Below, one piece after another: positions 3,063 through 60,261 of a stretch of DNA of 64,000 nucleotides (position 1 is its first letter; the number at the start of each line of letters is the position of its first letter). The notes under the pieces were generated by a model. It was given only the letters and a program-made list of their open reading frames with translations. It did not search any database and was not told where the DNA came from. The stretch spans positions 11,786,001 to 11,850,000 of the forward strand of contig OX419762.1 of assembly GCA_948567375.1 (NCBI GenBank). Direction: 5' to 3'. The position numbers and the translations under genes are program-made. The stretch comes from Lunularia cruciata. Its lineage: Eukaryota > Streptophyta > Marchantiopsida > Lunulariales > Lunulariaceae.

Positions 3063-3065
3063 AGT

Positions 3066-3271
3066 GTCCAAGCAATCTAGATGCAACACTACAAATGACG
3101 CGACAATTAAAAATTTGGATGTTGTCCATAGAGTAAAAAGTAAAGAGTGAAAGATGCTAAAGAGGCTTGTCCGAGCAATCTAGATGCAACACTACAAATG
3201 ACGCGACAATTAAAAATTTGGATGTTGTCCATAGAGTAAAAAGTAAAGAGTGAAAGATGCTAAAGAGGCTT
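3066..3271. repeat. 103-bp tandem duplication, two copies
   Basis: Units 3066-3168 and 3169-3271 are identical except for one base near the start (caagc versus cgagc). The unit lies at the integrase end of fossil A. The copies are far more alike than the fossil is to its relatives, so the duplication is much younger than the insertion. Confidence 0.95.
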
Positions 3272-3544
3272 GTTGATTGAACCAATTACCCATGGCCAAC
3301 CATAGTAATTAGAGACCACAATCTCCCAAGTGGACACTCTGCAAATCATATTTAGGCAATACTCTCTTATTGTCTAACCACTCTCTCCGCTAAACCATCT
3401 ACTTGAGTTTGATATTGGGAGGTATTATGATAGTCAATCAAGGCTTTGTCACACAAGACTTGAAACCCTACCAAGAACTCTATACCTTGATCAATCAAGA
3501 CCTCAACTGATGCACCAAAATGACTATTGGAAGTTTGAATAGGA

Positions 3545-9730: not shown

Positions 9731-9739
9731 AAGCTCTAG

Positions 9740-10173
9740 TTGTTAGTCCTTGATTGGAGAGGTAGGTGGTGCTTGGGATAAACTCTAAGCTCCCTTGCAA
9801 ATATGAACTAGGTCCATAAGCTCCTTTTGATGGCCATCCCCAATTTGTGCAAAGCTGGTTTGAACCTCTTCAAACTTGGCATTAGTGTGGCTCCAAAGGT
9901 TTGTAGACAACGCTTTGAGTTGCTTTTTGAGTATGAGTGTCAATTTGAGTGCGTAGATCCGTCACTTTTGTTCGTTTGGAGGTTCATGCTGATGTAGAAA
10001 TCGACAATAAAGGGTGCCACAATGGTGGCGGAACCTTTAGTCATGTCTTCAAGCAACTTGATGACCCGCCCAAAAAACCTCTTGGCCCCCATTAGCTTTT
10101 CCTTGTGTGCCAATTGGAAGAAGATAACTTGGTTTTGGTTACATAGTTTATTCATTTTAAATAGAACAACCAC
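9740..10173 (-). pseudogene. Decayed frame with coiled-coil-like sequence
   Basis: The minus strand carries coding-like, Lys/Glu/Gln-rich sequence. The upstream part, 9940-10173, is an open frame rich in charged and aliphatic residues (for example HKEKLMGAKRFFGRVIKLLE); a neighbouring frame continues with heptad-like, amphipathic sequence down to about 9760. It looks like a retroelement gag-like or family 2-like remnant, but no clear match to the family 2 copies in this window was found. It is broken. Confidence 0.35.
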
Positions 10174-10584
10174 ATTATTATTTTAGTGATGGTTTGATGA
10201 GTAGTGTACTTCATATATTTAATCTTATACCCATTCATAGATCTTATACCCATTCCTCATACAAACAAGTCATCAATTTTGCAGAGAGAGAAATGCAAGA
10301 ACTGGAAAAAGTAAAAGTGAAAATTGAGATTGTAGAAAGATTCTATTCGTAGGATGGTGTTGGTTTTTGTATAGTCTCAATGGGATGGGGTCCATCCTTT
10401 GTCTATCATAGTGGTTGGTGAAGGGTCAAAACCATCTATTATACACATGAGTATGGGTGCAAAATGGTCACCAACGGTTCTTTGGTGGTATGCATGTCTT
10501 TTTGCATGATCTTGAAATGGCAACAAGAATTAGGGGAGTTTCATAATTGTTGGAAAGTTGTTGTGGTCCTTGTCTCATGTCAAG

Positions 10585-10706
10585 GGACCAGACCTATTTC
10601 ATAGTTGGACCCATTTTTTCTTCCTTGTCTTCCAAATGGGCAAGCCCATTTGTAGGCCCCATGGAACAAAATCAAAGTGGTTCCAACTATGAAATAGGTC
10701 TGGTCC
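10585..10706. repeat. Fold-back repeat with perfect 25-bp arms and a nested hairpin
   Basis: Arms 10585-10609 and 10682-10706 are perfect reverse complements (25/25), separated by 72 nt. Inside the spacer lies a second perfect hairpin, aaatgggc at 10634-10641 and gcccattt at 10644-10651. The arms explain why similar short peptides are read on both strands. It could be a MITE core or a small-RNA-type precursor. No target-site duplication was recognised next to the arms. Confidence 0.85.
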
Positions 10707-11239
10707 TCTTCTTGTTGGGTCGTTGTGTGGGCCCATTTTGTTGAGGCATCAGATACCTTCATATTGCAGGGTTAAAACTCCCTATGAAATATTACTTCTT
10801 GACACTTGAATTAAGACTATTTATATGAAAAATGAAGAAAACCAAGGCTCAAAACAAAGTGGGTCATGACACATATAGTATAATTTTGGTAAAAGTTACA
10901 TCTAAGTAGCAATAAACAAAGTTCTTTAATCTATTATTATTCTTAGGATGCATAAGCTATTGTGATAACCCAATGTTGATAAAAAAAGTGATATAATGGC
11001 AAGAAACAAGTTGTTTCTTTGAGGGTACAATTTAGAAATGGCTAGATTGAAGAGAAGTGTCATAATTGGCTGTTCTTTATTATTAGATACTCCCCAAAGA
11101 GTGTATTATCACCAACTATAGTGCATTATGGAAAATGGAAATTAAAAGATCACTTTCAGTAAGGTTAAGTTCCAACTATTTCCTAAAGATGATGATTTAG
11201 TAAACTTCAAAGGGGCTACTTCACTAAAAAGACATTCAA

Positions 11240-14200
11240 ATCTACAGATTATGTTCTTCCTTTCCTAAAAAAATAACTCCAAAAGCTCTTCACATTGGCA
11301 ATAAGAATTCACTTTTTGATTTAGTGGTACTTTCAACACTACAATTCATTTTTGATCCATTAAGGCATTACTTTAATCCTTCAAAACTATCAAAGATCCC
11401 AAACCCTACAAACAAGTACAAATTGCACTCCCACTCAAGCGCTCAGGTTCCTACTACAAAGTTCCTCATCATTATGCACCATAGACATACAACCAATTCT
11501 CAAAATTTAAGGAAAACCAAAAAAGGGGTTTTGATCCTTTTGCCTTATTCATGGTCAAAGAACCAAATGAACTATTTACACTTAGTCTTAAATAGTTTCT
11601 TCTTACTCAAAGCCAAAGAAATCTAATGGTTGAGGTAGCCAAAGGATTTCTTGGCTCATCTGCACTATACATTGCTAATTCTATCTTTGTCTTATCTTAT
11701 CATCTTACATGTAGGTTAATTAGGTGCCTTATGCATATCAGTGAAGGTATTAATTCTTCCTCAAAGACAACGTACAAGTTTTTCTCCTTCGTACTTAATA
11801 CTCTAAAGGTACATCTACAGAGGTCCTACAACTATGAATGACTAGAACTATGAAAATTTCTTTACAAATTCTTACTCCAAAGATATTACAACTCCAAACA
11901 AATCTTTTAGTGAAGTACCTCTTTGGTCTAAAGTATTGCAAAGAACTACCTTTGCCTTTACAAATCCTAATAAGGAGCTTGGTCCACTCCTTGTACCCTA
12001 ATATTTCTAAAAGATAGGTATCACATATTTCAATGAACTTCCTAACTATATGTTCCCTAAGTCTAATTGAGTTGGTCTATCTTCTCATCTTTGTATGTCA
12101 ACCCTTCCAACTTTTGAACCTACAAATTCAACTCATGTAACTTCATCTTCATTACCCTTCCTTGAGCTTCCTCTAAGTGCTTGAGGATTTCACCTTCTCT
12201 TTCCTCCCTCCAATATTCAAACATCTGCACTTCAAGGGTGACCATCCTTATCTTGGTAGTCTCCAATTCTCTCAAAACCACTTCTTTATCATTGATCTTT
12301 AATTGATCTTCATACTCAAGTTGCATGTAGGTTGCAATCAACAAAATCCCAATTCAAATTGGATCCTTTGGATTTCTTCCTCTTGCTTCTTCTTGTCTGA
12401 TATTAGGAAGGAGTTCTGCCTCTTCATGTCAGATTTTTCTTGTATGAGCTTGTTTATTCTTCTAGCTTTCTCTTTGTACATGTTTCTATTCTTCTTAATC
12501 TCTTCTTTCCATCTATCCTCATTTTCTATACTAGTGTACATTACATTGTGTAGCCTTCGAATAAGCATGGTGTAATCTGCCATATTTGAGTAGACTTCTT
12601 GGCATTGGGGGTAGAATGAGATCCATCATCTACAAGGCCAAACCTACAAAATGTATCACAAAATTGGCCCCCTCCTTTATTGCTACTCTTTGTTCTTAGG
12701 CAGCCTCTCCCCTGAATTTGGTATGTACTCCACTCAGAGAATCTTTCCCTTTTGACTCACTGTCCACCTTCCCTTTGGATTCTTGTTGTTGTCCTTTGGT
12801 CTTCTATTGCCTTTCACTTGGAAGGTTTTCTTCTTGTCTCCCTTTGTTGTCCTTTGGAGACAAATTTTTCTTGGGCGGGGCTAGAGGTTTCTTTGGCCCA
12901 AAGTTGAGAGTTTCTTCTTAGATATCTTTGGCTTGATCTTCTTAATCAGCTTGTTTTTCTTCTTGCTCCTCTAGATTTGGGGCAGATTGGGGATTCTCAT
13001 ATTGCTCTTGTCCTTTGGACTCTTGTGTAGACCCTTGCAAGGTAAAAAAAATTGTCTCCTTCTTGATCCTTGCTTTTAGTCTTTTACTTCCTCTTTCAAA
13101 GACACATTTATGACCTAAGGACTCGTCCTTGTCCTTTTGATTGGATTTTGAGGCCTTGATAAAGTTGAACTCTTCTTGGTTGTGTTGGTAGTTCCTTCTT
13201 TGTCCACAAGTATAACTCACAAGATGTTGCATATTTGACATCAATAACTTGATACTTCCAAATGAGCGCTTTCACTTCAAGTTGCAGGGTGAAATACCTT
13301 GATGGGTGATAGTGGCTTGAAAACTTCTTGCACTCTTCTTTGGTCAAAAAATTTAACCCCATGTAGAAGTGGATAGGAATTGGCGCTATGCATGTTACTC
13401 CAATGTCTTTTGCAAACTCTTTGTGCATGTTCCTTGCTTGCAAGTAAGACATTTTAACCCAATTGACTAGCTCTCCTTGATACATATACTCAAAAAAGAT
13501 AGCATGGCTATTGTTGAGGTAGGTTGTTCTCTTTGGTAAAAAAAATTTCATTATTGCCTTTGTAATCACTATTTGGGCTCAATTCTTATAAGTGCACATC
13601 CTCTAGCCATTATTAGTGGCTAGAGGATGTGAACTTATAAGAACTGAGCTCAAAGGATTTAGCAATTTGGGTATTTAGCTCCTGATATGTGAGCCCAAAC
13701 TTTGCCTCTAAATGGTCATTTCTTCATATCAAGGGAAATTCACCAATTCTCCTCTATCCAAGCAGAAGGGTTCTTCCAAGATCCAATATTGCTCTATCTC
13801 TTCTCCTCTTCATTTCATGGATAATCCAAAATTCACTCAACTCACAATTCTAGAGCAAGAAGGAGAGATGTTTGCTCTAGACTAGCTCACTCTTATAATA
13901 AATTGCACATTTTTTCACTATGGGATTATGCAAGATCGATTTGCGGATCTCTCTCATAGGTTTTTGGACAAATATCAATTTTTTGAATAAAAGAAACAAT
14001 TACAAAGAGTATTAAAACTACAAAGAACTACAAAGGTCTAGATTGCTACTTGCTCTTTGGCTTAAATGATAATAGAAAGTAAAATTGATTAAGGTGCACT
14101 AAATTTTTTAGCCAAAAGTCTTCAATCAGCAGGAGTAGTCACTCTCCACACATACAAGTACCTTGGTGAATGCAAATGGTCTTTGGTGGTAACTCTTTAT

Positions 14201-14330
14201 CTAGGTGGTGGTGCATTCAAATCAATATACAAGCTTCATGTCCAAAGGTCTTTGGGTCAAAAGGTCCTTTGTACTTGAGTTCTTCAACTCTGACCCCCTT
14301 TTGGACTTGACTCCTATAGCATTCTTCCTT
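11240..14330 (-). mobile_element. Family 2 repeat, copy 1 (decayed, unrecognised coding family)
   Basis: The minus strand shows, 5' to 3', a leader (about 14330-13650), an N-terminal domain frame (13569-13108), a Lys/Glu/Gln-rich linker frame (13244-12942), coiled-coil frames (12583-12338 and 12344-12120) and a non-coding tail (about 11900-11240). The same order and similar sequence recur at 16270-19305, 47760-50990 and 51500-53450. Conserved pieces include PKRTTYLNN, FFEYMYQGEL and HFYMGLNFLTKEE in the N-terminal domain, and KMKLHEL in the coiled coil. No reverse transcriptase, integrase, transposase or LTR is visible. It might be a non-autonomous, gag-like LTR element or a decayed host gene family. 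It is broken and treated here as a fossil. Confidence 0.7.
13577..13649. repeat. Near-perfect hairpin, 33-nt arms, 7-nt spacer
   Basis: Arms 13577-13609 and 13617-13649 match at 31 of 33 positions, with spacer 13610-13616. It lies just upstream of the family 2 N-terminal frame. The tiny spacer and the absence of transposon features suggest a template-switch origin. Confidence 0.9.
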
Positions 14331-16270
14331 TAGAGTGCCTTGTGCTTTGTATTTGTTCCCTTCATACCACTACCATTGCATATACAGATAGAATTCCAAA
14401 GGAAACTCAATTAAGAGGTTTCTTTCCACTATAAATCAATTATCCTATAATATCCTTGTGAAATAGAGAGAAAATAATCAATTTTTTTATCTTAATTTTA
14501 AAAATTTATGCACCACAACTATCAAAAAAAATAATATACTTCTTTAGAAGCTCAAGGTAGAAAAGGATAAATCCAGATACTACTACTTGTTTCTCTTACT
14601 CTCATTATACTTGCTCCCACTATGTTAGTGATCTCCACTAACATATTTGATTTTATGCATAAATTTTATTTGATTTTATGCATAAATTTTTAATTATATC
14701 TTACTAGTTCTCTAAGAGCTAAGGAGCTTATATTGAAGCCAACCAATGAGTAAACATACATAAATATATCTTCAAAAAAATTTTCTCATCCAAATCATTA
14801 AACTTAATCAACCATCTACCACTAATATCAAGGTATACTTCATCTAATATTTTGTGTTGATTCTCTTACTTCAAGGAATCTCCTTTATTATTAATGATAT
14901 TCCTTACTTCTTATCTAAAGAGAACTGATTTCATCTTTCGTAACCATACCATTGTTTTTTTTGTCTACCCTTACCTTTTTCTTTCTTGATGAATATATCC
15001 TCTGTATCACTCTTATTGCTTCAAGATAATCTTTTCTATATTGCTTTCTTTTGCTTTAAAGTATCTCTTCTATCATAAATCCTACTTTTCAAAAGAATTT
15101 CCAATATCCTCCATGTTTAGAGAAACAATAATCTCTTTCCATGTTGTTGTTTTTGCTTTAAGTATCTCTTCTATCACTAATCCTACCTTCTTACCTCTTC
15201 TCTTCCAATGTCAATATAGTCCTTGTTTACTTCCCTTTCCTAGTGTTGTATTTAATGTGATATTCCATGTTTATTTTTTATATAGATATTTTGAAGACCT
15301 ACAAAACTTATTTTTAATCTAAAATATTTTACAATGTTAAGTATTTGAGGTCTTACTACTCAAATAAAGTTTTGTATATGTATTTAGAAAAACTTTCTAT
15401 CTTGATATATACAGATATGTTCATATTTTTCTATTTTTTTCTTTAATAATTATAATTAACTTATCTAATGAAATGAAAAACATACCTATTAGATTATTTT
15501 CTCTATTCTAGTAATATTTTTTTCTTAATTTTTTTAGTTCTCTCCTACTTTTAATATTAATTTACCTGATTTGGTCTCATGCATGAACATCTCTACATCA
15601 AGTAGTTTAGATCATTTATGTATATAAAATTTCTATACTAAATCATTTAAGTGTGAAAAAGAAGAGAAGAGTCACTCTTAGCTATACTAAAAGTCTAAAA
15701 AAAAAATAAAGTTAAAATATTCTTAAAAATAAAATGAGTTATTCAAAATATGTATCATAAGTTATTCAAATGATATATGATGAAGGAAATTCAATTTTGG
15801 GGTTATATATTCAAATATTTTTTTATCAAATGAACAAAAATTATTTATTATTTCTATACTTTCTTCAACATTGGACTGTTGTATTATAAAATTTCTCATT
15901 TGATAGTTTATACTCTCAATGCTACTTTGTACCTAACAACACTAAATTAATATGTTTTCAATCCTAACCAATACTACCTTACCTTAATTAAACGCTTGCA
16001 TAGTCTCCTCCAATTCATCAATTTTAGATGATGTGGTATAGTTGGTCCACTCATTACTCATCGACCTGTACAAGTCATTTTTGACTAAAGATAGACTTTA
16101 GTATTGTGGAGCACATATTTTTGAAAAAGTTGTTTTTTAATTGTTTCCTCTCTTTTTCATAAGGATTTGGTAGAATAATTGCTTGTTCAGAAAAAGGAAA
16201 TCTCTTAATTGAGCTCTCAATTGAGTTATATCTAGACATGCAAGGGTACAAAATAAACAAGTACAAAGAT
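14330..16270. other. AT-rich spacer between two head-to-head family 2 copies
   Basis: This stretch is strongly AT-rich with long A and T runs. No coding frame beyond chance was recognised. It separates copy 1 (minus) from copy 2 (plus), whose leaders face each other. Confidence 0.6.
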
Positions 16271-19200
16271 GAATGCACTCCAAAGGAAGAATCCCAAAGA
16301 TTTCAAGTTTGAAGTATGGTTGGAGGAAAAGAACTCAAGTACAAAGGTCCTTTGGACCCAAAGGCCGGAGACCATGAACATCTTGGATCCAAAGATTGTA
16401 CATCAATTTGAATGCGCTAACATCTAGATAAAGAACTGCCATTGAAGATCATTGGTGTACACCAAAGAGCTTGCATGTGCAAAAAGTGATTGCTTAGCCA
16501 TGGATTGTAACAAATTTGGCTATAAAGTCAAGTGCACATCAAACAATTTCACTTTTGGCCAAGAGTTTTCAATCTCAAACTTAAAGAGCAAGCAATTATC
16601 CTAGATCTTTGTAGTGCCAAACTTAGCTTTTTGTGCTTGTAGCATTCTGATATGCAACATGGTATTCACTCCCAAGCCTAAAAGAAAGATCCATGAAATG
16701 ATTCTTTGTGCCTCAATAGTGAATAAGTGTCCAATCTAGTGCAAGATTGAGCTGGTCCAAAGAAAGCCTATCTACTTCTTGTTCTAGAATTGGGAACTTA
16801 GCAATATAGGAATCCTCCAAGAAATGAGAGGCAAAGAAAAAAGAGCATCAAAGGATCTTTGAAGGAACTCCTTTGCATGGTCCAAAAGTAATTGCAGAAA
16901 TATCTTTGGTCTAGATGTAGCTTGAACAAGCAGCATCACCCTTGACATGAAGTTCAAGAACATGTGAGAGGAGGTAAATACAAGGATTGCAAACGCATGT
17001 GCAAAAAATTGATCAACTAACAATGGCTAGAGGGTAGGCAATTATAAGGACCAATCCCAAGTAGTTGTGTAAGCAATCATGCAAATTTTGACAAGAAAGA
17101 ACTACCTACATCAACAGCAACCAAGCCATCTTCTTCAAGTATATGTACCAAGTGGGGTAGTGAATTGGGAAAATATTTTCTTCTAGCAAGCATGGAGCAT
17201 AATCAAGGAGTTTGAAGAAGACAACATAGCAATCTACTTAGCACCCTTTGCCATCCAATTCTACATGGAGCTAAAACTATTAACCAAAGAAGAACAAAGG
17301 AGGTTCCTAAGCCATGATCACCTAATCAACTTGTAACCCAAAGGCAAGTTCATCATTCATAAGTATCAAGTTCTAGATGCAAAGTATGAAAAAATTGGGA
17401 GGTTTATATCAATGGATGAAGAAGGGATCACCATGGTCAAGAAGAAGAGGACAACATCAAAAGACCTCAAACCCAAGTAATAGATGTGTCTTTGGAGAAA
17501 AGAAGAAGAAGAAGACTTCAAAGGAGAAGATAAAGAAGAGGAAAGCAACTCATTAACCTTGCAAGGGTCACTATTTGAGTCCAAAGACTAAGAGCAATAT
17601 GAAGATGTGAAATCTTCACCAAATATAGAAGAGCAAGGTACAAATCAAGAAGATTAGGCTAACAATGAGCAAGAAGAGGAAGCACAATATTGGACCAAAG
17701 AGTCCTTCACCCCAATTCAAGAAGAGCAAAACTTGGAAGTGCAGCAAGAGGCCAAGGAAAAGGTGGCGAAGAAACCAAAGGGAAGATAGATGTTGAAGAC
17801 AAGGACAAGGACCTTCCAAGTGGAGTACAACAACAAAAGAAGACACCACACAAGTATAAAGATAACCAATAATGGATGGCAATCCTACCTCAATACTAGG
17901 AGGTTTATGCAGATGCCACCAATTATACCTCTCTTTTCCAAAAACTACACAAAAATATGTACACAAGGAGAGTGAGCCAAGATAAGTGGAAGGAAGAGGT
18001 GGAGAAGAATCAGAACCTATAAAAGGAGGAGTCCAAGAAGGTGAACACATTCATGTATAAGACTTACAAATAGAAGTGTCCAAGCCTTTTCCTCACTAAA
18101 AATGGCACTCAACACAAAGAATAAATTTGGAGGTTGCAAGGAGAATTGAGAGTTTCTTGAAAACAAGCAAAAACAACAAGGGTATGAAGAGTAGATGGAG
18201 GCAAGAGATGAAGAAGTTAGAATTAGAATTTGGGGAGAGTTGTAGGCAGCCAAGATAAGAGTGTCACTTGGAAGTACAAATAGCTAAATACAAGAAGGAG
18301 ATGGCCATCCAGCCAGAGAATCTATCTCAAGAACTTGCAAAGGAAAAGGAAGAAAATGCAGCAAATTGGCACCAAATGTTCAAGGAAATGAATAAGGAAA
18401 TTGCAGCCTTACACAACTCCAAAGAAACCAAGGTGAAGGAACTCCAGAAGATCAAGGAAGTTTGTGACCAATTGGTGACAATGATTGAAGAGGAAGTGCA
18501 AGGTAAGATGACCAAGACAAAATTACAAGAGCTAAAGTTAAAAGTCTATAAGCTAGGGGAAAAGTAGTACAAAGTTGCAAAGTTGGACCAATTAGACATC
18601 AAGGTTTGAGACCATAAAAAAAAAAAGTTTAAGTAATGCTATGACTTCTTATGCCTAAAAATCATTGACTACTTGGAGAGGACAAAAATCCTTATTCAAG
18701 TTTGTAGGGCCAAAGTTAATTCTTTGCAATAGTATCTTAGGCCAAAGATCTTAGGAGAAGAAGTTCTTAGTAGTTGTAGATATTCTTCTCACTTGTAAGA
18801 TTTTTGTAGATGTAACCTTTGGAGTAGTAAATCCAACAAAGTCAAACTGCAAGTTGTCTTTGGGGAAAAAACTTATACCTTTCCTAACACATAGAAGGCA
18901 CCTAATTAACCTACATGTGAAGACAATAAAATAAGATAAGAAGATAGGATTATCACTAGGACAATGAGGATGAACCAAGAAGATCTACATGGGAATAAGA
19001 TAGAATAAAATAGGAAGATAAGATCATCATTGTATAGGAGGATGAGCCAAGAAGATCTTTGGATTTCTTGACTGCTAGATTTATTTGGCTTTGAGTACAA
19101 AAAAACTGTTTAAGGCTTTGGCCTAATGTAAATAATTCATTCAATCATTTAAACATGAATAAAGCAAAAGCGCCAAATGCTCTTTATCACTTTTGCTTAA

Positions 19201-19305
19201 ATTCCACATTTTGATGCATGCCTTGCCTTCATTGAGTTATTGTGAGGAAAATTTGTAGTAGGAACATGAATAGTCAAGTGTATGACCATTAATACTTGTG
19301 ACTAG
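16270..19305 (+). mobile_element. Family 2 repeat, copy 2 (decayed)
   Basis: This is the plus-strand counterpart of copy 1. The leader (16270-16640) matches the reverse complement of about 14330-14010. The N-terminal domain region (about 17040-17400) contains recognisable FYMELKLLTKEE, followed by an acidic/basic linker (17440-17790) and a coiled-coil frame at 18268-18567, which is Glu/Lys-rich and ends in KLQELKLKVYKLGEK. The tail (18720-19305) matches the tails of copies 1 and 3, including the block around 19250-19290. It is broken in many places. It abuts the LTR of gypsy fossil B. Confidence 0.7.
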
Positions 19306-20344
19306 GGTGTGAGATGTCATGACATTTGTAGTGCCAAAGCTAGTTTTCTTGGACACAAGAATAGTAAAGTTGGCAGTTGCTCATGGATTACTTGTTGGCT
19401 GCCAAATTCATGTTAGGGCTATTGATCACATGGTGAGATCACCTTCACTTGCACCATTGGATGTACTATCAATGGCATAGTTAAGACTAGAGACCTAGGT
19501 TGAGCAAAGGGGTATACTTTCAAAGTGCAACTTTAAAGAGCTGATTTCTTTGATGTTGAACCTTTGAGTTTAGGGTTCCTGGCTATGGTGAACAAAGATT
19601 GAGTGAAGGGTAGAGTATAGATCTGATTTGAGTGTGATTTGAGTGGAAAAATGAACTTATTATATCAGAGAAGTAAGAGAGGGAAATTGGGTGCAAGAAC
19701 TAAGGACGTTGGTGGTATCTCCAAGCCTGGTTGATCATTGGTATATTCAATTGTGGTCCTTGATTCCTTGAGAGTGATTGTGGATGGAAGTCCTATTTGA
19801 GTTTATATAGATTTGGCAATTGGGTTAGATGGTGGTGAAAGTGTTGGCTAAATTTTTGAGAATTGAGTCAATTTGAGACAATGGATGTTTGATTTGACCC
19901 CAAGAGGTGAAATCAAGGTCAATTTGGTGTGAATTGAGCAACAAGTGAAAATTTAGAGGTAAATTTGGAAACCCATCCCCTTGAATTAAAGATTGGAGAT
20001 CACCATCCTCTCAATTTGGATCAAGTTGAGAATTAGCGGAGGATTTGGTGGTCAACCAACTATAGAGAAGGTGTGTCAGATTGGCAAAGATTTTCCAAAT
20101 TTGGAGGTCAAATTGGTGGAAGTTGTCATGAGTTAAAGATTGCTTAAATTTCCCTAGCTAGTGCTCAAGTTGGTGAAGCTTTGCCAAATTTGGAGAGGGT
20201 TTGAATTGGCAAGAAGAAAGGCCTCATTTTGGTGTTTAGAGGCTTTGAGGCATAAGGTTGTGAGCTAGAGAGGTTACAAACACCTAGAAGGCTAGCTAGT
20301 TTAGATGAGTTTTTGGTAGTTATTGGTCATTTTTTTGGCAAAAT

Positions 20345-20530
20345 CTGCCCGCCCTTCTAGATTATGCACAACAAGGTTTGAACCCCAAATCTTTGGTTCC
20401 TAAATTGGTGCCCAAGCCAATTGGGCCACCTTCACTTTTTGTCTTAGTGACTAGTTGACTGATACCTATACACATGTAGCTTTGGCTAGGAGAGGCAATT
20501 TGTGTGCCCTAGCCAATTGGGCCACCTTCA
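20345..20530 (-). mobile_element. tRNA-related SINE-like insertion
   Basis: On the minus strand there is a tRNA-type box A (tggcccaattgg, in a GCCC...GGGC D-arm-like context) and, about 40 nt further on, a box B-like ggggttcaaacc. This pair of internal RNA polymerase III promoter elements in tRNA spacing marks a tRNA-derived SINE head or a tRNA relic. The anticodon and acceptor stems do not form a convincing tRNA. The stretch is absent from the equivalent LTR part of fossil A, which supports insertion. Its outer ends are unclear because of the tandem duplication on top of it. Confidence 0.5.
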
Positions 20531-20598
20531 CTTGTTGTCTTAGTGACTAGTTGACTGATACCTATACACATGTAGCTTTGGCTAGGAAGGGCAATTTG
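20408..20598. repeat. 96-bp tandem duplication, two copies
   Basis: Units 20408-20503 and 20504-20598 are nearly identical. They include the box A part of the SINE-like sequence. The similarity is much higher than between the surrounding LTR and its relatives, so the duplication is recent. Confidence 0.9.
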
Positions 20599-23500: not shown

Positions 23501-24299
23501 CCTACCAATATTGCTTTAGTAGTGGTAGTCTTGGCTCACTACAATTAGGGACCATGGCATCAATTTCAACTTTCAATGGTTTTGTTACTGGACTTGTGAC
23601 TTATTGGAGTGAAATGCCCATGCGGAGGATACTCCAATACTAAAAGAGATCACTTGGATTTGGAGTACAAGTGATATTGTTCCATCCATCTTGGATGTTC
23701 CATTGTGGAATTCTAAGGAGGTGTTACAACAACAAGTGGATCAATTAGTACAACAGGCTTGGAGGGGAGCCTTTATACCACCAAGAAACCAATTTGAGGA
23801 TGAGCTTCTAGAATCTATTACCTTACTACCTTTGGATACCACACTCATTGCTTGGCAATATCAAATAGAGAGAATATGTTGATTGGAATTTTTTGGTGGG
23901 ATTAGCACTAGACTAGCTGCAATACTACAAGCAAGCATACAAGTACAAAGATACTTGTATGTGAAGAGAGATGAGACGCTAGGTGAGTCTCTCTAAATCA
24001 TGTAGCACACCTGGCCTATTGGTATCTTGAGCTATTGCCAATTTCAATAGTTAGGGGTTATTAGAAGACCCTACCAATAGACATTTCTTTGTTGGGGGTG
24101 GAAGATATTGGAGAGATATGGTCCCATTCATTTGGTGATTTATGGATGGACATGTCAAAGACATACTCATGATGGCTAAGGTCAAGGTCTACAAAATCCT
24201 TGTTCTGGTGTGTTTTGGGAGATGTTATGTATATTATGACATCTCCAGGTTTATCAATCCATTCTCCAACCTATATTTTGGAGAATGTACATTTGAACC

Positions 24300-24840
24300 T
24301 TCTTAGGTATTTTGGCTATAGAAAGAATTCAACTCACCCAACATTGTCATTGAATTGCAGTTGCACTTGAAAACCCATATCAAATTCCCAAGTATTTTTA
24401 TTGATACCAATATTCCCTCATCAAGTTCTTGATAGCTTATAACTTCATTCCTTGCAGTCAATATTTGGTCAGTCCTTAGACTTCTTACTTGCAACATCAT
24501 GCAATTATTATGATATATCAATGTTGATAGTTCTTTTTTGGCAATATTCAAATTCCTTTCAACATGTCACCCCAACCTACTTTGTACCTATTATCTCATG
24601 CCATGTTAGTGACCATACCTTGTATCTATCCCACATGTGACAAAATGAATGCCTCTTCTTACTTAACACCAAGGTGTTGTAGTTACCTTGCAATACAACA
24701 CAATTCTTTTCCTCAAACTTCTCTTGTCTTACTTCATTGCAAAGTTTGACTAAATTGTGCTTTTTTATTGAGAACTACTAAAGAAATTCTCATTTTCAAA
24801 ATATTAATATAAATATCTCTTTTATACATAAAAAATAATA
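24300..24840. repeat. Repeat fragment between fossils B and C, paired with 51180-51460
   Basis: The part about 24520-24760 is similar, in the same orientation, to about 51250-51450, which lies between family 2 copies 3 and 4. No protein was recognised. It separates the broken end of B from the broken start of C. Confidence 0.45.
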
Positions 24841-27800
24841 ATATTGAGCACCACAAGAGTTGGACACAAGAGCTTATTCAATTGAGAGTGTAGATTGTAT
24901 GTACACATTGTTGTTATGGGACATGGCCAAGATTTTTGGGGCCTCCAAAGGCCCCAAGTGCTACTTTGGTAAAATGAGTACTATTGAATTAGATGGTTTT
25001 CTCCAAGAGTTTGATAGTTGATGTGATTTGGAGCAGATGTAAAATCAAAACTTTGTTCACACTCTTCATGGTGGGAGAAAGGTTGTTCCAAAACTTGGAG
25101 GGTCCACCTATAGATGACTACATAAGTTTAGGAGAGTACACTTTGGAGACAATTTTGGTTTTCAAATTACATCTCCATCACTTTGGTTTGGTTTCTAGAG
25201 GTAGACCAACAATACCCATGAGTTCTAGTTCTAATAGCATTGGTGTATCTAGTGGAGGTTCACTAGTTACTACCACAAGTGGAGGTACCATTTCAAGAGG
25301 TGGCATAGTAGTGAGGTTTAATTCCATGGTAGAATTCTTCTAGTGCTTGAGGAAAAACTACCAATGAGTGCAAACAAATAAGCTAAAGAGCTTGCAAGAG
25401 TTCCAACAAAAGGTTGATGAGAACCTATGCAAGCCATATGCTTGCATAAGATGGCTTATCAAATTGTCTCAAGGAGTTATTGAGGCACAAGTAGTCCAGT
25501 TTTGGTATAGGATATTGGACAAGGAGCTATGATGTAGAGTATATGATATTATGTTGTTGCAGGCTACCCCATAAACTTTGGTAGTGGTTTTTGGTTTGGA
25601 AGAGTGCATCAACATGGTGGAGGAGAGAGTGGTGATAGCTGGATTTGGTAGAGAGACCTCATCCACAATTGTTACTTCTTCTAGAGTGCACCACACCATA
25701 TTGAATTTCAAGGATAAAGTGAACAACCCTTATCTTATGGAGCAAGTGGGGAGCCTAGTGCACCTACGCCTTTACTCTCATTTTTTGTTTAGTAATAGCC
25801 AATTGGTGGTGTTGCTTGTTGGACTTATGGTGGATCTCACCACAAGAGAAAGTGCACCCAAGGTAGTGGTTATGATACCTTTAGAGCACCACAACCAACC
25901 CAAAGATAATGTGACGATTGCCATAGATTTGGCCACACTAGTCAGTCATTGATGCTTTGGTCTCCACTTGGAGTTATGGAGTGGTAGTGCTACTATGGTG
26001 GGTGGTACAAGAGCCTAAGGTCATAGATGACAAGATGGTAGAGGTAGAAATAGAGGATTCACACCTAGTAAGGGTATAATAACTACCTTTACTTCTACTA
26101 CAACCATGACTACTTGGATTGAGAAATTGGAGCATAGATTGGCTAGCATGGTATAGCTCAAGGGAACATCAAATTTAGATGTTGAGGCTTCCATCTCATA
26201 TGTTGTTGGGAGATACACTTGAATTTATATACATATCAACGCAAGTACATATTGCCATAATGACTAGGAGTGCAATATGTGCTCTTGAGCCTAGAGGAGC
26301 ATTAGTGGTGTTGGACCCATAAAGAGAAGGGATTGGTGGACAAGTCAAACTTCCGCAATATTTTACATTTTGAGGCACTATAGACAACATCCATGGCTCT
26401 TAGATATCCTAGTGTAGGTGTGGTAGGTGGTGATGGAATTTAGGATAGACTAGATATTTTTTAACCACCTACTTCTATTAAAGATTGTGTCTAGTACACT
26501 AGTGGGGCGATCCAATTGATTATGCACTCTACTTTGTTCTCAACCATTGATATATTTACATTGAGAATTGACCTAGCTCTATTTTTCAATTGGTTACCAC
26601 CCTTTGCAAGAGTAGGGATGGTGTGGTTCTTGCTTCTAGAGTAGAGATGGTTGATAGTGGAGCAAACTTGGTTGAGGAACATGAGATCCATTTGGCTACC
26701 AATGGCTTGTGGCAGGCAATAGTTATTAGGTTAGAGGAGTTAATTGCCAGACCTGCATTTGAGTGAGCTTTGTTTACACCTAGAGTTGTCTTATTGGACA
26801 ACCAAAGTGATATTTTTTGTTTAGTATTACCTTTATTGAATGTCTATACACCATAGAGGGTCTTATTAGAATTTGGTGTGCAACTTCTTATGTTGGGGAA
26901 GGTTGTAGTTTTTGGTCTTGGGCTATGAAAGACCGGTGTAGAGAGGTATCCATTTCAGATCCAAACATCTCTAGGGGGTGATTCCACCCAATACATCACA
27001 TGTGGAGAACTCATGGTCTAGATTCAGCCCAGGTCATCTGATTGATAGTTTTGTGATGAGATCTTTGGCCTATGATGTACTAGTTGGTGGAGCAATGTTA
27101 TACTCCATGGGTTTCAACATTGACTATTGGGAGGAGACAACTTCCTAGAGGTTAGTTTGGTAGTCATGTGAAGGATGTATATGTCACCTATTGGTGTGCT
27201 TTAGTAGTAATAATCTTGGCTTACTATAGTCATGACTATGACATTAGTCTCTTCTTTCAATGGTTCTATTACTTGGCATGATGAGTTATTGGAGTGGAAT
27301 GCCCATGCAAAAGATGCCTCAATAATAGAGGAGATTCTTTAGATTTGGAGTACAAGTGAGGTTTTTCTGTCCATCTTGGATGTTCCATTGTGGATTTTTT
27401 ATGAAGCATTATAGCAACATGCAAATCAGTTTATTTAATAGGCTAAGAGTGGAATCTTTGTACCACCATTAGACCAATTGGAGGATGAGTATCCAAAGTC
27501 TATTATCTTCTCACCTTTGGATACCACACCTATTGATTGGCAGTATTGAATGGAGGAAACATGCCTATTGGATTTTTTTGGTGGGATCAAGATTGGACTA
27601 GCTATGGTATTGCATGCAAGCATACATGTTTATAGATAATTGTATGTGGAGAGAGATGAGATTGCTAGACTAGTCTCTCTATATCATATGGCATACTGGC
27701 CTATTAGTATCTAAAGTTATTACAAATGTCAACAATTTGGGATTACTAGAAGACTCCCACCATCAAACATTTCCTTGATGGGGGTGCAGGATTTGGAGAG

Positions 27801-30300: not shown

Positions 30301-30689
30301 ATCAGATTTGAGCATGTTGGCATGGTGAGACAAATGTGGAAATGGCACCAAGTTGGCATGCATCTTCCTTCCTATTTTTATTTTCTAAGGCTTTGGGGAT
30401 ATCTCTCTCAATACAAACAAGAGGTGTTATTGGGATCTTAGATCTAGAGGGTGGAGATATTGGTATAGGTCAGCGAGATATTCATGATGTTGTCTTAATG
30501 ATGGACTATCTTTGTACTAATGTTTTGAGTGGCACAATTGGTGCCAAAGAGAGAGACAATTTCCTTTAGCAAGCCAAGCAATTCAGATTGGAGTGCAAAC
30601 ATCTTCTTGGGTATGGGAGGATCGGTTAGGGTACAAGTTTACTCCTTTTATTTTGAGACCACAATTGGTATAGCATGCTCAGTAGAATC

Positions 30690-43243: not shown

Positions 43244-43249
43244 TGTGGA

Positions 43250-46200: not shown

Positions 46201-47750
46201 AACAGGGTCATGTTGTGAAATTGCTCTATTATTTTTTCTAGAGTACGTCTTACAGAAGGAAATCAGTGTCAGTTCTCTCACGTGAAGGTAATGATTTTAG
46301 ATAGCTTTACCATGAAAGTGGATCGGGCGTTGATACTCAGCTATCGAGCATTTACCTGCAATAGCCCCCCATGATAAGCTCGGGGCCAAAGGAGATCTTA
46401 ATTTCCTCCTGCGGTTTAGTTTCGTTTAGAACCATAGAATCTCATCCATTTAAACTTCATTCTAACTCAAGCTGATACTTCACGATTTCAGCAAAAACTA
46501 AAGCCCCAGCCAGATCTCGTGAAGGGAGCCTAGAGTTGCTCGAGAACACGGCGAGATCCGATTCGTTTCTTCTCTTGCACTGGAAAATGAATCACTCACA
46601 GCTTCGAGCAATTGTACTTACGTGCTGGCTAGAAGTGGTTCGAGAGAGAGAGAACCCAGATGAAGAGTGGATTTTACTCAAGCAATTGACGCACTCAAGG
46701 CAATGTGGAAAAAATCGGGTCGTCTGTAGTTATCGTGCAGCTCAAAGTCTGACAACGATTATCCTATTTCTGTAAGACCCCACACAGCACTCACTTAGAC
46801 GACAGCAGCTCACCACGATTCCGGTCCGCAGCAAGACATAATCTCTCGAAAGAGTAACTCGTATAGTGAGAACTGAATAACCCAAAAGATAACGTGCACC
46901 TACGGGTGATCGGTACTGTTGTCCACTACCCACATCTGCAGTAATTCTGCCACAGTTCAACATGCTCACTTTCATGTGCTAATCTTAAGCCGTGTCCAAG
47001 TCCGTAATTCCAATCAGGTCAACCAGGCTTGTTTGACTACAGTACTATAGGTAGCAAAAAGAGATTAAGTGTACTATCTGAAAGCTGAAATTTGTCATCT
47101 CGGTGTTCGAGTGGACCTCATGAACTGTAAGAGTATAAGACAGTGCACTTTTCCCGCCACCACTACAACGATGACAACCTCCTCTCGTCAACTTGTAATG
47201 ACTGACGATCATGCTTCCAGATCCGCTGCTCTAAAGGAGCATTCAGGAATAGACTATGAATTCCTGTGAATGTATGAATTTGTACATGACTTTCAGCAGA
47301 AAGAACAAAAACTATTCTCTTTGTAACAGAGGAGATTCCACCAAGTGGGATTTAGAATGCGGTGGCAGTAATTTAAATATGTTTCCAGAATCAAGTTTAT
47401 TGCTTATTGGGATTGTAATATCCTTCTATTTTTGGCCCATAACTCCACCTTAGAAAACTGATTTTTAATGGAAATTTTGGGCTTGAGTTTGTTGTTTGCA
47501 CAGTACTATAAATTGTAGTATTATGCTAGGGTTGAATTGCAGTGACACCTTTCTTTCCAATTCAACTTAGTGTGTTTGTTTTCCTATTTTTGGCTCATAC
47601 TTCCTTCAAATAAGAATTATAAAATGGGAGAATAAGGTGCTTGAATCTGGGTCAGTTCAAAACTATTCCAGTTATTCCAAAACTAGTTCAAACTATTGCC
47701 TTAAGGTGATGATTTCAGTCAACTCCAGAGGAGAGGCTTCAGTACAAGAC
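43250..47750. other. OCT upstream region and intergenic DNA, no recognised gene
   Basis: The first part (to about 43400) probably holds the OCT 5' UTR and promoter. Further right, open frames stay below 111 aa and none resembles a known protein. Around 46140-46220 a short imperfect direct repeat (gaaacagagtcat... and gaaacagggtcat...) is visible. About 30 bp near 47033 resemble 61391, both containing ttgactac and gtactat. Confidence 0.5.
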
Positions 47751-48681
47751 ATTCAACTCCGATCTCATTGAAGCTCATCTTCTACCCTTCCTGGAAAGTA
47801 CAACCCAAAATGCACGTTGCATTGACAATAGGACTTCAACTTTTTGATTCAGTGGTATTTTCAACACTACAATACATTGTTATGTTCCTTCTGAACATTC
47901 AAATATCCAGGATCCTAATCACAAGCATACATGAGGGAAATTTCTCATATGGATACTATTGAGGTCTAGCCCCATTTTACCTCTTTTATCACTCAGTGTA
48001 TGGCTTGATGGGTCTTCCCATCCTTCATGTGTTTTATGTGGTCCGTGTTTTCTCTCATCACAAGTAAAAAGTGCACTCCCACTCAAGCACTCATGTTTCT
48101 ACTATAAAATTCCTCATTACTACTCCCCAAAAGCATACAAGAAACAATTGGAATTTAAGTAAAAGATAAGAAAGGATTTTGGATTTTTCACTTTATTTAC
48201 AATCAAAGGAATGAATGAATTATTTACACTTGTTGAAACTTTAAATAGTTTCTTCATACTCTAAGTCAAATAAATCTAACTGGTTGAGTAAATCCAAGGA
48301 TATTTTTGGCTCATCCTCACTATACATTGGGAATTTTATCTTTGTCTTATCCTATTTTATTACATGTAGGTTACTTAGGCGCCTTACACATGTTAGTGGA
48401 TATCAAATCTTCCCCAAAGACAACTTGCACTATTGTCCCTTTTGGACTTACTACTCTAAAGGATACAACTACAAAAGTGTACACTTATGAAGATCTACGA
48501 ACTGCTTCCTACTCCAAAGATCCTACAACTACAAAGAACTTCTTTTAGTGAAGTATCTTTGGCCTAAGTACTATTGTAAAGAACTATCTTCACCTTTACA
48601 GTTTCTAATAAGAAGCTTAGTCAGCTCCTTATAACTTGTTATTTCTAACAAATAGATATTTGTAACAACTCAAAGCTGCTA

Positions 48682-48727
48682 CTTCAGCCATTACACTAAT
48701 CTTATTAGATTAGTGTAATGGCTGGAG
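48682..48727. repeat. Hairpin, 18-nt perfect arms, 4-nt spacer
   Basis: Arms 48685-48702 and 48707-48724 are perfect reverse complements around tatt; allowing one G-U pair they extend to 48682-48727. It lies inside family 2 copy 3, at the end of the coiled-coil frame. Confidence 0.9.
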
Positions 48728-50312
48728 CTGGACTGGTTGAATCTCTTGATCTTCCTATTTCTCCTTTAATTATCCTTCTAACATCTACTAACTCTACCAT
48801 AACTTCACCTACTATCATTTCATTGTTTGATTCACATTGTGTAACTACTTTGGATTTAAGTAAAATGATCAGCTCTCTAATGTCACTTTGCATCATAGTA
48901 ATATCTAGACATGAACTATCACAAGCCTCTTTCATCTCTCTATCACATGGATTATTAAGCTTTACCAACAATAGATTAATGTCATTGCCTTGAGCCGCCT
49001 TACTTTTTGTCTCTTGGACATGTAACTTGAGTTCATGCAGTTGGAATTCAATCATTACTCCCTCCATCTGAGTGGACATCATTGCTTGAAATCAAGGATC
49101 TATTCCTCCAACTTCTCTCCCCTCAACATTTCTTCACTGATCACCTTCTCTCCAAAATTTACTAGCTCAATTACTACAATATGATGTGTCTGGTTTTCTT
49201 TGGCTTTATTCAATAGGTTTTGCAATCGGGTAATTTTGGCAATGAGGCCCTTCTGAACCGTCACCAAAGAGATCTCCATTGCTTCAATCTTGAGTTGCAT
49301 AGAATCTAGTTCAGCTCAAATTTTTGTTTCCTCTTGAGTTTCTTTACATAGTTCATTCTCTTATTTGTTTTGCTTTTGTAAGCTTGTTGCTTGCAAGGTT
49401 GTCATCTCATCCTGGAGTTGTCGGATTTGTTTGGTGTACATTTGTACCACCAAGGATTTTTGTGTCACCTCTTTTGTCCTTTCTACCCCTTCATGTTCGT
49501 ATCAACACACACTTGATATACAACCCTCTAGTTTTCATATGTTTGAATTGACTTTGCATACTATCCAATTTACCTTTCAATATGGACACATTAGCATGCA
49601 TTGCCTTGACCAACAAAGTATAATCATTAATTCTTGGGTAATTACTTTTGGACATCAACAACAAAGTCTATAAATAGTTGACTACTGGATATAGAGTACC
49701 CATGATGAACTTGGACCATCTACATTAGTTCCTTCACTACCATTGGCCACTAAAAACCCATCCTTCCATAGTATTACTTGGAACCGCATGGCCTATAGAT
49801 ATACTTGGAGCAAATGTGCACATGGATTCAGTGCACAATGTCAAATTTCCTTGTAGATCTTGGTTTTCATCCTCACAATTTCCTTCTATCACAGCCGCAA
49901 CAAAAGGTTTGGTAGCTATAAATGCAGATTTCACAATGTCTTCATCTTTGTGATCATCAAAATCAATTTGAACCCAAAGTGCACAAAGTCAACTTGTCCT
50001 CATCCACTATATTTTCTCCTTGAGAATTGATAGTCACTCCACCCTCCAATGATAGATCAATAGGTTCTTCAAGGTCTTTTCTTGGTTGTTTAACAAGATG
50101 GATCAAGAGACATTTACTCTAAGGAGATAGAGAAAGTTTGACTTTCTTCTTTATAACTCTTTCTACCTTCACAAACTCTCTTGATGACCTAAACATCTCA
50201 TCTCACTCCTCGTACCAGTTTGTTACAGATTGGTCAGATGCCCTAGGCTCATTTTCATGTGTTTTGTATTGTGTTTTAGCCTTTTGACTCTTTGGGTCTT
50301 CCGGGCTTTATA

Positions 50313-50370
50313 TTTCATTGTTCATTGTTCATTTTTCATTGTTCATTGTTCATTTTTCATTGTTCATTGT
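50313..50370. repeat. Short tandem repeat, 21-bp unit
   Basis: About 2.7 copies of a unit made of ttcattg repeats with a ttttt interruption. A simple minisatellite inside family 2 copy 3. Confidence 0.85.
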
Positions 50371-51179
50371 CCTTGACTTGCTTCATGAAGCAAACATTGT
50401 CTTGATCCTCATAAAGAACATCTTGTAAATAAAACTGACTAGGAAACTTTTGTCTCTCCTCTTATGTCAGCAGATTCAGCCCGAGATACAAATATATCAC
50501 AAACAGGATAATATAATGAGGTCCATTATCCCCATCTAATCTTTTACCATCTTCTTCACATAAGTATGAAAGATTTTATCCAATTCATACTTGCTCCTCA
50601 AAATATCCAATCAAAAAATATTGCTTTTGTAACACTAATGTTTGTGGTTTGTTCAAGTTTGAACGACACATGAGGGAACTAACAATGTGGCATTTAATAG
50701 TGACTTGATACAATCCTACTTTGTACCCATTTCCCAATCATTCTTTTGCAAATTTGGCCTTAATATCATATATCTCGTCTTTTGGTCTATATTTGTAATC
50801 AAATGTCAGCACCTTCAAATCCTCAACTTCAGGTCCCAAGCCATTACCCAATCCTACAAATCCAATGCATGTGGATTCTCTTGTTGTCTTTGACTTCCAT
50901 CCATTCCACCGTCTATCATCCCATGCAAAATCTAGGGCAAACTCATTTCCCAATTCCAAAGTTCCACCTTTGCATGTTTGGCTTCCATTTCCCACTTGTC
51001 AACTTGTGGACTTTGAATGTTCTAGCTCATCAACTTGGTTCTGCCTCCCTTTTTATGCATTTTGGCTTCCAACTACACTCAAACTTCCAACATTCTCACT
51101 TTATACCACAACAAAATTATGAAAGTTGATCTAAACAAGTCCTTCTTCATATCCTTGGCTTGCTTAAATCCCCATGCTT

Positions 51180-51460
51180 CCTGATCTGTCATCAATCATT
51201 CCTCATCCTTCTTACATGCCATGTCATGCAAGCCTTATGACTTCCCTAACATTGATTGTTCTTTTTTGTACTATTCAAATCTTATCTATAATGTTAACCT
51301 AGCCCATACTTACTACCACCAACTCTATCAAGGACCGTACTTCTTATTTAACTCCAAAGTACTACAATTACCTTGCATTGCAACTCAGCTCTTTACACAA
51401 AACTCCTTTCTTCACACTTAAGTGCAAAGTTGGACTAAAGTTCAAATTCTTATTACATTT
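51180..51460. repeat. Repeat fragment, partner of 24520-24760
   Basis: Similar in the same orientation to the fragment between fossils B and C, including attgttctttttt, a caaag(t/g) block and the tail around 51350-51450. It lies between family 2 copies 3 and 4 and may be part of the copy 4 tail. Confidence 0.45.
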
Positions 51461-51499
51461 GGGGCCCAAACCTAATAGGAATTTCCACTTCTTTGTAAA

Positions 51500-53450
51500 A
51501 TATAAGAAAAAATCTACCTTTATACACCAAAAAAAAAAATATCAAGGATCACAATATCACAAGCCTCAATTAATTTCTGATAGGTATGCTCTCTAAGTCT
51601 TACTACTAGATGATCCATCTTGTCTTCATTGCATGTCTTTCTTTCCAAACTTTGTACTTGTAGCTTCAGCTCATGCAATTTCATCTTTGTGATTTTTCCT
51701 TGAGTTGCTTTCTCCAAAATTGCCACAAATTGATCTCTTGCCTCCTCTAACTGCTTGTGGATATTCATTTCTCCTCCTTTGAACTTTGCTTCCTCTGAAT
51801 GGTTGCACAATGCATCCATTTCTTCTTCATCTCTTCCATGATTCAAGGCAGATTTGCTATTCTTTCCTTCTTCTTCTTTCTCAACTCTTTGGCCAGCCCT
51901 TCAAGTTGTGAAAACACCTCCTTTTGATACTTAGACATCTATATTTCTAAGGTTACCATACTTATTTTATTTGTCTCCAATTCACCTCAATATTTACTAT
52001 TTCTTTATCTTTGGTCTTTGTATATGAGTTGCATGTACTTCTTTGTTATTCAAAGGGATCTCAATTCAAATTGGACTCTTTGGAGATCTTATCTTGCATC
52101 TTCTACTCATTGTTGTTCTATCTCTTCACTTCAAAGATCTCATGTACAAGTGCGTTCAAACATCCTCTTGAACTTCCCTTTATACAAGTACAAGTATTCT
52201 CCATCTTCTCCTTCCATCTATCATCCTTTGCATTTTCAATGTAAATGACCTTATGTAGTCTCCAAATAAACATGGTGAAATCAACTACATCTAAGTAGAC
52301 TTCCTAATTTTGGGGCAGAATGAGCTTCATTATCTACAAAGCCAAACCTACCAAATTATTACAAATTTTACTCCCTCTTTTATTGGTACTCTTTGTTCTT
52401 GGATAACTTTTTCCCTCACTTTAGGTTGCTTTTCTTTTGGAAGGTCTTTGTCTTTGGACTCAATGTTTACCTTCCATTCAGCTTCTTGCTCTTATCCTTT
52501 AGCCTCTTGATGCACTTCATTTATAACTTCCTCTTTTGCTTTCCCTTTAGGGTCATTTTCTTCTTAGGTAGGGCTAGTGGGTTATGTGGGCCAAATTTGG
52601 GGTTCACCATGATCCTCAGTTTGGTCTCTCACTTGGTCCACTTCTTATTCTTTTGGATTCAAGCAAACTGCACATCTTTGTACTAATCCCTTCCTTTTGA
52701 TTCCAATGAAGACCCCTACATGGTGAATGAACCTTCCTCATCTTCACTGTCATCTGCCTCCTCCTCCTTCAAAGATACATCTATGACTCGAGGATTATTC
52801 CTTGATCTCTTTGCTATAGTTTGGGACCTCAATGGTGTCATCCTCTTCTTCTTCATCTTCATTGTGGTGGTTCTTTCTTTGTCCACCGGTACAAAGTTGC
52901 CAAATTTTGCATACTTGGCATCATCAATTGGTTCCCTTCGGGTTGCTAGGTAAAGTAATGACATGTTGGGTGGTAATGATTTGGAAATTTCCTATGATCC
53001 TCTTTTGTTAGTAAATTCAGCCCCATGTAGAAATGTATGGAAAAGGAGCCTATGTCACTCCATCACCTTCCTCTAACTCTTTGTGCAAACTCCTCACCTA
53101 TAAGTAGAACATGTTTGTATAATTTATGAGTTATCCGTGATATATGTACTCAAAACAAATTTTTTGGTTGTTAATGAGGTAAGTTGTGTTCTTTGGCCAA
53201 AATCTTTTCATGATTGCTTCCACAACCATACTTCAAGCTGGGTCTTTGTATTTTCTCACCCTCCATCCATTGTTAGACCTCTTTATCCAAAGAAGTCAAT
53301 GATTTGGTTGCTCAATTCCTTTCCAATGGACCCAAATTTACAATTTCTTCCTATTAAATACCTTTTGCTTCAAAAAAATTGATGCAAGCTACTCTTCTTC
53401 AAACACAACTCAGTTTTGTACTATAAGAAGCAAAATATTGTAGTTCTTAA
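51500..53450 (-). mobile_element. Family 2 repeat, copy 4 (decayed)
   Basis: On the minus strand: N-terminal domain remains (about 53260-52930) with pieces such as TYLINN and FEYIYHG that parallel copy 1, a basic/acidic linker frame at 52964-52716 (KKKRMTPLRSQTIAKRSR, then PRVIDVSLKEEEAD, shared with copy 2), and a coiled-coil frame at 51846-51520 containing KMKLHELKLQVQSLE. It is broken. The linker and coiled coil are the best preserved in this copy. Confidence 0.65.

Positions 53451-57461: not shown

Positions 57462-60261
<2,800 letters not shown>

What the first reader, a model, noticed from the sequence alone, without database searches (positions are those of the whole stretch)
11240..19305. 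Unrecognised multicopy coding family ('family 2'): N-terminal domain, charged linker, coiled coil
At least four decayed copies in this window (11240-14330 minus, 16270-19305 plus, 47760-50990 minus, 51500-53450 minus) share a leader, a coding block and a non-coding tail in the same order. Seen: conserved N-terminal domain pieces (such as FYMGLNFLTKEE), a basic/acidic linker with PRVIDVSLKEEEAD and a coiled coil with KMKLHELKLQVQSLE. Not seen: RT, integrase, transposase, LTRs. Inference: a non-autonomous retroelement with a gag-like protein, or an expanded and now dead host gene family. I do not recognise the N-terminal domain. It is the best candidate here for something not yet described.
Basis: partly seen in the sequence, partly recalled or inferred. 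Interest (0 to 1): 0.75.

Follow-up and report, generated by a model that had tools for sequence, protein, structure and literature searches.

The report
Dead, unnamed gag-like plant repeat family
A stretch of what looks like plant DNA holds at least five broken copies of an old protein-coding repeat that matched no catalogued protein domain; it is most likely a dead, helper-dependent mobile element, or else a dead host gene cluster.

Summary
The four copies are real and I found a fifth (minus, about 10240-9862). In 6 of 8 pairwise tests mismatches pile up at the third codon position of the domain's own frame (N-terminal block C1xC4 30/33/60), so the lineages diverged as working coding sequence before dying. 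"Same order in all four" holds only for C1 and C2: C4 lacks leader and tail, and C3 has another upstream stretch.

The tail is 77% identical between C1 and C3, their N-terminal blocks 49%, near the shuffled baseline of 45%. I infer that the 3' end was exchanged between protein lineages.

No Pfam model reached its cut-off. The same scan found RT, RNase H and integrase pieces in a decayed Ty3/gypsy element of the window. No convincing LTR, primer site or pol was found. A heptad test did not support the coiled coil, though AlphaFold2 gives one long helix.

Most likely: a dead non-autonomous retroelement with a gag-like protein (0.45). A dead host gene family (0.3) and a gag block of a longer element (0.2) stay open. 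No plant genome could be searched, so novelty is untested.

The parts
11168..14518 (-). Copy C1: leader 14518-13616, N-terminal block about 13640-13213, charged linker about 13180-12620, C-terminal helical block about 12341-12033, tail 12021-11168
   Evidence: linker limits by eye
16104..19301 (+). Copy C2: leader 16104-17017, N-terminal block about 17013-17426, linker, C-terminal block about 18319-18678, tail 18675-19301; followed at about 19313 by an LTR-like gypsy sequence
47685..50689 (-). Copy C3: divergent N-terminal block about 50689-50339, C-terminal block about 49166-48777, tail 48659-47685
51520..53276 (-). Copy C4: N-terminal block 53276-52868, linker with PRVIDVSLKEEEAD, C-terminal block 51900-51520; no leader or tail like those of C1/C2
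9862..10240 (-). Copy C5 (new): N-terminal block only, divergent lineage; 10173-9862 by profile, the rest by eye
51140..51554 (-). Stretch between the C4 and C3 coding blocks; matches 24856-24414 minus (62% over 462 columns)
24414..24856 (-). Second copy of the 51554-51140 stretch, lying antisense between the two gag-region copies of the gypsy element

Best explanation
A dead, long-established family of small retroelements that coded only for a gag-like structural protein (N-terminal block, highly charged linker, long C-terminal helix) and ended in a conserved non-coding 3' tail. Shown: a protein-coding sequence that diverged under purifying selection into several lineages and then decayed, and a tail much more alike between C1 and C3 than their coding blocks are. 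Inferred: the tail was exchanged between lineages; the protein packaged its own RNA; an autonomous element elsewhere supplied reverse transcriptase and integrase; and the tail was the cis-acting piece which that machinery recognised.
For: Mismatches at codon positions 1/2/3 in the ORF's frame: N-terminal block C1xC4 30/33/60 (p 0.0002), C2xC4 50/35/63 (0.003), C1xC3 39/40/62 (0.0006), C1xC5 40/34/56 (0.0004); C-terminal block C4xC1 35/33/53 (0.001), C4xC2 51/39/68 (0.0008). Tail C1xC3 77% against 49% in the N-terminal block, shuffled baseline 45%. C-terminal block modelled as one 122-residue helix, pLDDT 81. Copies on both strands among other decayed retroelements, none of those read being intact. 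No pol model across the copies and near flanks, although the same scan found pol pieces in the gypsy element.
Against: No LTR was shown: tail and upstream regions do not match in the whole-window comparison. Of 24 local comparisons of the three tails, 21 lie within 60 shuffles; 3 exceed them, all with the C1 tail, and one of these is the very pair that an LTR would give (C1 tail against C1 upstream, z 3.2; the others z 2.4 and 4.6); C2 and C3 tails do not repeat it. No primer-binding site beyond chance. No poly-A end at C1 or C3 by eye and no target-site duplication shown. C1-C5 and C4-C3 lie head to tail about 0.9 kb apart, as in a gene array. The N-terminal block does not compare with the gypsy gag of this window (hhalign probability 0.2%) and could not be modelled (pLDDT 46). 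Two of the eight codon tests miss (C1xC2 p 0.09; C-terminal block C4xC3 p 0.05). Between C1 and C2 tail and N-terminal block are equally alike (71% and 69%). Dispersal in the genome was not tested.
Confidence: 0.45

Rival explanations
1. A dead host gene family: a plant gene of unknown function that multiplied by local duplication and whose copies in this window have decayed; gene conversion made the 3' ends alike.
For: Purifying selection before decay is what host genes show. Neighbouring copies C1-C5 and C4-C3 are on the same strand about 0.9 kb apart, and five copies lie within 44 kb. No convincing LTR or primer site, and no pol model.
Against: No working copy seen in the window; between C1 and C3 the non-coding tail is far more alike than the coding part; the coding blocks of C1, C2 and C4 align without intron-sized gaps (by inference); a piece of the C4-C3 interval also lies inside a gypsy element.
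Confidence: 0.3
2. The gag or additional-ORF block of a larger autonomous LTR retrotransposon, of which only this block and part of the 3' end survive in these copies.
For: Gag-like order of parts; C2 is followed within about 12 bases by a gypsy LTR-like sequence; the C4-C3 stretch recurs inside the gypsy element.
Against: Three copies pass from the C-terminal block straight into the same tail with no pol between them; apart from the antisense stretch 24856-24414, nothing in the gypsy element matches family 2 at DNA level.
Confidence: 0.2
3. Chance open frames in AT-rich repeats of no coding history.
For: C1xC2, taken alone, shows no clear third-position excess (33/36/44, p 0.09; windowed test p 0.48 for leader and 0.22 for coding).
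Against: Six of eight tested pairs show the excess at position 3 of the same reading frame at p 0.0032 or less.
Confidence: 0.02

Closest known systems
TR-GAG / LARD-type non-autonomous plant LTR retrotransposons (definition recalled; the names seen only in search listings)
   Same: Coding capacity limited to a gag-like protein (TR-GAG), dependence on a partner for pol, dead multicopy repeats
   Different: These are defined by terminal LTRs, which were not shown here. No gag model matches.
Gag of the Ty3/gypsy elements in this window (A at 1-3526 minus, B at about 19313-32572 plus)
   Same: Retroelement structural protein, also decayed
   Different: One of two gypsy gag pieces weakly hits Retrotrans_gag (E 0.016); family 2 does not, and profile comparison finds nothing (0.2%).
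Retand elements with extra ORFs between pol and 3' LTR (PMC11963269, abstract and section list seen)
   Same: Additional plant retroelement ORFs of unknown function
   Different: Those ORFs are antisense to gag and pol in elements with LTRs; the abstract reports such elements in eudicots and Liliopsida only.
HAL1-like ORF1-only LINEs (recalled, no call)
   Same: Structural protein only, and a shared 3' end that a partner's enzyme could use
   Different: No poly-A or simple-repeat end seen at C1 or C3 by eye; no ORF1 model matched.

Membership tests
LTR retrotransposon (incl. TR-GAG, LARD) | Direct long terminal repeats at both ends | tested here: not met
   No match between tail and upstream regions in whole-window comparison; 21 of 24 local comparisons within the shuffles; C1 tail against C1 upstream is slightly above them (z 3.2), not repeated by C2 or C3. 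Decay could hide an old LTR.
LTR retrotransposon (incl. TR-GAG, LARD) | Primer-binding site for initiator tRNA | tested here: not met
   TGGTATCAGAG (motif recalled) with up to one mismatch: 3 places in the window, 1.2 expected; the only one upstream of a copy on its strand and within 3 kb is 2.1 kb before C4 with one mismatch. Other tRNAs not tested.
LTR retrotransposon (incl. TR-GAG, LARD) | Target-site duplication | tested here: inconclusive
   Ends uncertain and copies strongly diverged; looked at by eye only
Ty3/gypsy or copia gag (Retrotrans_gag and related Pfam models) | Match of the protein to a gag model | tested here: not met
   No gag model in any scan of family-2 sequence: sense frames of C1, C2, C4 and of C3, C5 and the C1 tail, single blocks, typed consensus pieces. 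Control: 1 of 2 decayed gypsy gag pieces hit, weakly (E 0.016, under cut-off).
Autonomous retroelement or DNA transposon | RT, RNase H, integrase or transposase in or beside the copies | tested here: not met
   Sense frames of 9000-14480, 45000-51600 and 51500-56200 minus, of 16140-19400 plus, and both strands of 14400-16200; only RIH_assoc at E 0.0056, under cut-off, in 14400-16200. Control: gypsy pol pieces in 3 of 3 frames, RNase H above and RVT_1 and Integrase_H2C2 just under their cut-offs.
Tesmin/TSO1-like CXC protein | Cysteine-rich CXC domain above Pfam cut-off | tested here: not met
   E 0.018, 15.8 bits on a hand-joined leader piece; E 0.13, 13.0 bits on C2's own frame; no CXC match in three frames of C1; cut-off 23.5 bits
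Known plant repeat family | Match to a repeat library or to other plant genomes | not testable with these tools
   No genome held; no plant collection. Viral contigs: 4 completed scans, prokaryote contigs: 1 scan, plasmids: 1 search, none gave a relative.

The most novel reading that the evidence does not exclude
An ancient, unnamed lineage of plant gag-like proteins with a previously undescribed N-terminal domain, carried by non-autonomous elements that swap a common 3' tail between protein lineages that are hardly alike any more at DNA level: a modular parasite in which the cis-acting end is conserved and the capsid-like protein diversifies.
Probability: 0.18. Interest if true: 0.55.

Novelty: new member of a known kind. 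Interest (0 to 1): 0.35.

Why it matters
If intact relatives exist, the family would add a structural protein domain to plant mobile elements and show, in one short window, 3' end exchange between divergent protein lineages. If it is a host family, it is a gene array that died here and may live elsewhere. Uncatalogued, diverged repeats are common in very large plant genomes: the loblolly pine BAC/fosmid study reports 6,270 novel full-length element families, 82% annotated as single-copy, and says that most conifer LTR elements remained uncharacterised (PMC3762812, abstract text and passages seen). Lack of a name alone is therefore not surprising.

Tried and rejected
Tail as an LTR: not shown (one weak hint, C1 tail against C1 upstream, z 3.2). 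Leader as a CXC zinc domain: seen with a hand-made piece that joined two reading frames, fell to E 0.13 on C2's own letters and to no match on C1; dropped. WH1, RuvA_N, Tom5, AP_endonuc_2, EGF_integrin, Coatomer_g_Cpla: scattered matches at E 0.04-0.4, each under its cut-off and none shared by two copies; RIH_assoc at E 0.0056, under cut-off, in the interval 14400-16200. A start codon at the shared AA(C/T)AATGG about 13610 / 53270: dropped, because by my reading it is out of frame with the domain in C1, C2 and C4. Relation of the N-terminal block to the window's gypsy gag: none. Fold of the N-terminal block: AlphaFold2 pLDDT 46, not worth a fold search; no fold search was run. PDB by sequence: best E 1.4 and 0.12, read as chance. 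Rfam and tRNA scans of the window: 0 and 0. Periodicity in the gypsy gag copies, meant as a coding control, was absent (p 0.36 and 0.98), so that control did not work; it fits copies that diverged after death. Early misreading: I first aligned the 24414-24856 match in the wrong sense; searches show it is antisense to the gypsy element.

Full report
What is there. Self-comparison of the window shows four related copies, which I call C1 (minus 14518-11168), C2 (plus 16104-19301), C3 (minus 50689-47685) and C4 (minus 53276-51520). C1 and C2 share leader, coding block and tail. C4 shares only the coding block. C3 shares the tail strongly and the coding block weakly. C2's tail runs to 19301, and an LTR-like sequence of a Ty3/gypsy element begins about 12 bases later. 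Translations of the four copies carry many stops and frame changes.

A fifth copy. A profile of the N-terminal block finds a further match at 10173-9862 minus; 0 of 60 Markov random windows reach its 12.6 bits (best 7.4). C5 was in none of the profiles; four variants of the profile find it at iE 4e-5 to 7e-3. Profiles built without C3 find C3's N-terminal block at 2.7e-7 and its C-terminal block at 8e-9.

Coding history. In the ORF's own frame, mismatches concentrate at codon position 3 in six of eight pairwise tests at p 0.0032 or less; C1xC2 (p 0.09) and the C-terminal block C4xC3 (p 0.05) do not reach that. The alignments of C1 with C3 and C5 are at low identity, so their counts rest on alignments that are themselves uncertain. 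Windowed periodicity without a chosen frame agrees: C1xC4 and C2xC4 p 0.001, C1xC2 coding p 0.22, leader p 0.48, tails p 0.61 and 0.73. So the lineages C1/C2, C4, C3 and C5 separated while the protein mattered; C1 and C2 probably diverged mostly after death. The gypsy gag copies used as a control showed no periodicity (p 0.36 and 0.98).

A tail that was probably exchanged. C1 and C3 are 77.1% identical in the tail (95% interval 73.9-80.5) and 48.6% in the N-terminal block (43.0-54.2), where shuffled sequence gives 45.1% on average and 49.8% at most in 30 shuffles. C1 and C2 are 70.9% and 69.3%, that is, no different. A neutral tail cannot be that much younger than the coding block beside it unless one copy took its 3' end from the other lineage, or the tail moves or is constrained on its own. 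I infer exchange, by template switching or gene conversion.

What the protein looks like. No Pfam model reaches its cut-off in the sense frames of C1, C2 and C4, of C3, C5 and the C1 tail, in single blocks or in typed consensus pieces. NCBIfam gave none for one typed piece. The same scan on the decayed gypsy element recovers RNase H above its cut-off and RVT_1 and Integrase_H2C2 just under theirs, at E 5e-5 or better, so the blank is informative, though no proof of novelty. The linker is 28-41% charged, but in all nine frames looked at. The C-terminal block is predicted as a single long helix (pLDDT 81), while a heptad test on four copies does not support a coiled coil (p 0.09 to 0.95). The N-terminal block could not be modelled (pLDDT 46).

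Surroundings. No RT, integrase or transposase model in the sense frames of 9000-14480, 45000-51600 and 51500-56200 minus, of 16140-19400 plus, or on either strand of 14400-16200. The initiator-tRNA primer motif (recalled) occurs at chance frequency, the nearest upstream one 2.1 kb before C4 with one mismatch. The stretch 51554-51140, between the C4 and C3 coding blocks, recurs antisense at 24856-24414 between the two gag-region copies of the gypsy element (z 13.4 against 100 shuffles).

Reading. Gag-like order of parts, multicopy decay on both strands and a 3' tail shared across protein lineages favour a non-autonomous retroelement. The missing LTRs and the same-strand neighbours favour a gene array. 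I give 0.45 and 0.3, and 0.2 to a gag block torn from a larger element. None of these can be settled without the genome, which is not held. That the host is a plant, perhaps a gymnosperm, is inference from the decayed gypsy-rich landscape and the neighbouring genes; it was not tested.

Novelty. I searched four times in viral contigs, once in prokaryote genomes and once in plasmids, each without a relative; none of these is a place where a plant repeat should be. Five literature searches were topic searches; they cannot find a sequence, so I make no claim that the family is absent from print.

Noticed in passing
about 19313-32572 plus: Decayed Ty3/gypsy element B with LTR-like ends, a gag region present twice in tandem (21159-24296 and 24856-27983, 73% alike) and RT, RNase H and integrase pieces.
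   Followed up: partly
1-3526 minus: Second gypsy copy A in which integrase end, LTR-like part, leader and gag follow directly on each other, as if two elements shared one LTR; a 106-base tandem duplication at 3065-3273.
   Followed up: no
40528-43258 minus: Gene of a major-facilitator transporter: 474-residue ORF hits Sugar_tr and MFS_1, with an apparent further exon at 42758-43258 that matched no Pfam model; organic-cation-transporter-like by my reading.
   Followed up: partly
about 57465-60387 minus: Aldehyde dehydrogenase gene or remnant; 58842-59333 hits Aldedh and class-3 ALDH structures; two other pieces tested gave no Pfam match and are assigned by eye.
   Followed up: partly
39009-39551: Direct repeat of about 260-287 bases, 93-97% identical, far less diverged than the family-2 or gypsy copies.
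   Followed up: no
14518-16104: AT-rich stretch of 1.6 kb (27% GC in the 14001-16000 bin) between the facing 5' ends of C1 and C2, whose flanks are not alike; one weak RIH_assoc match on the minus strand (E 0.0056, under cut-off).
   Followed up: partly
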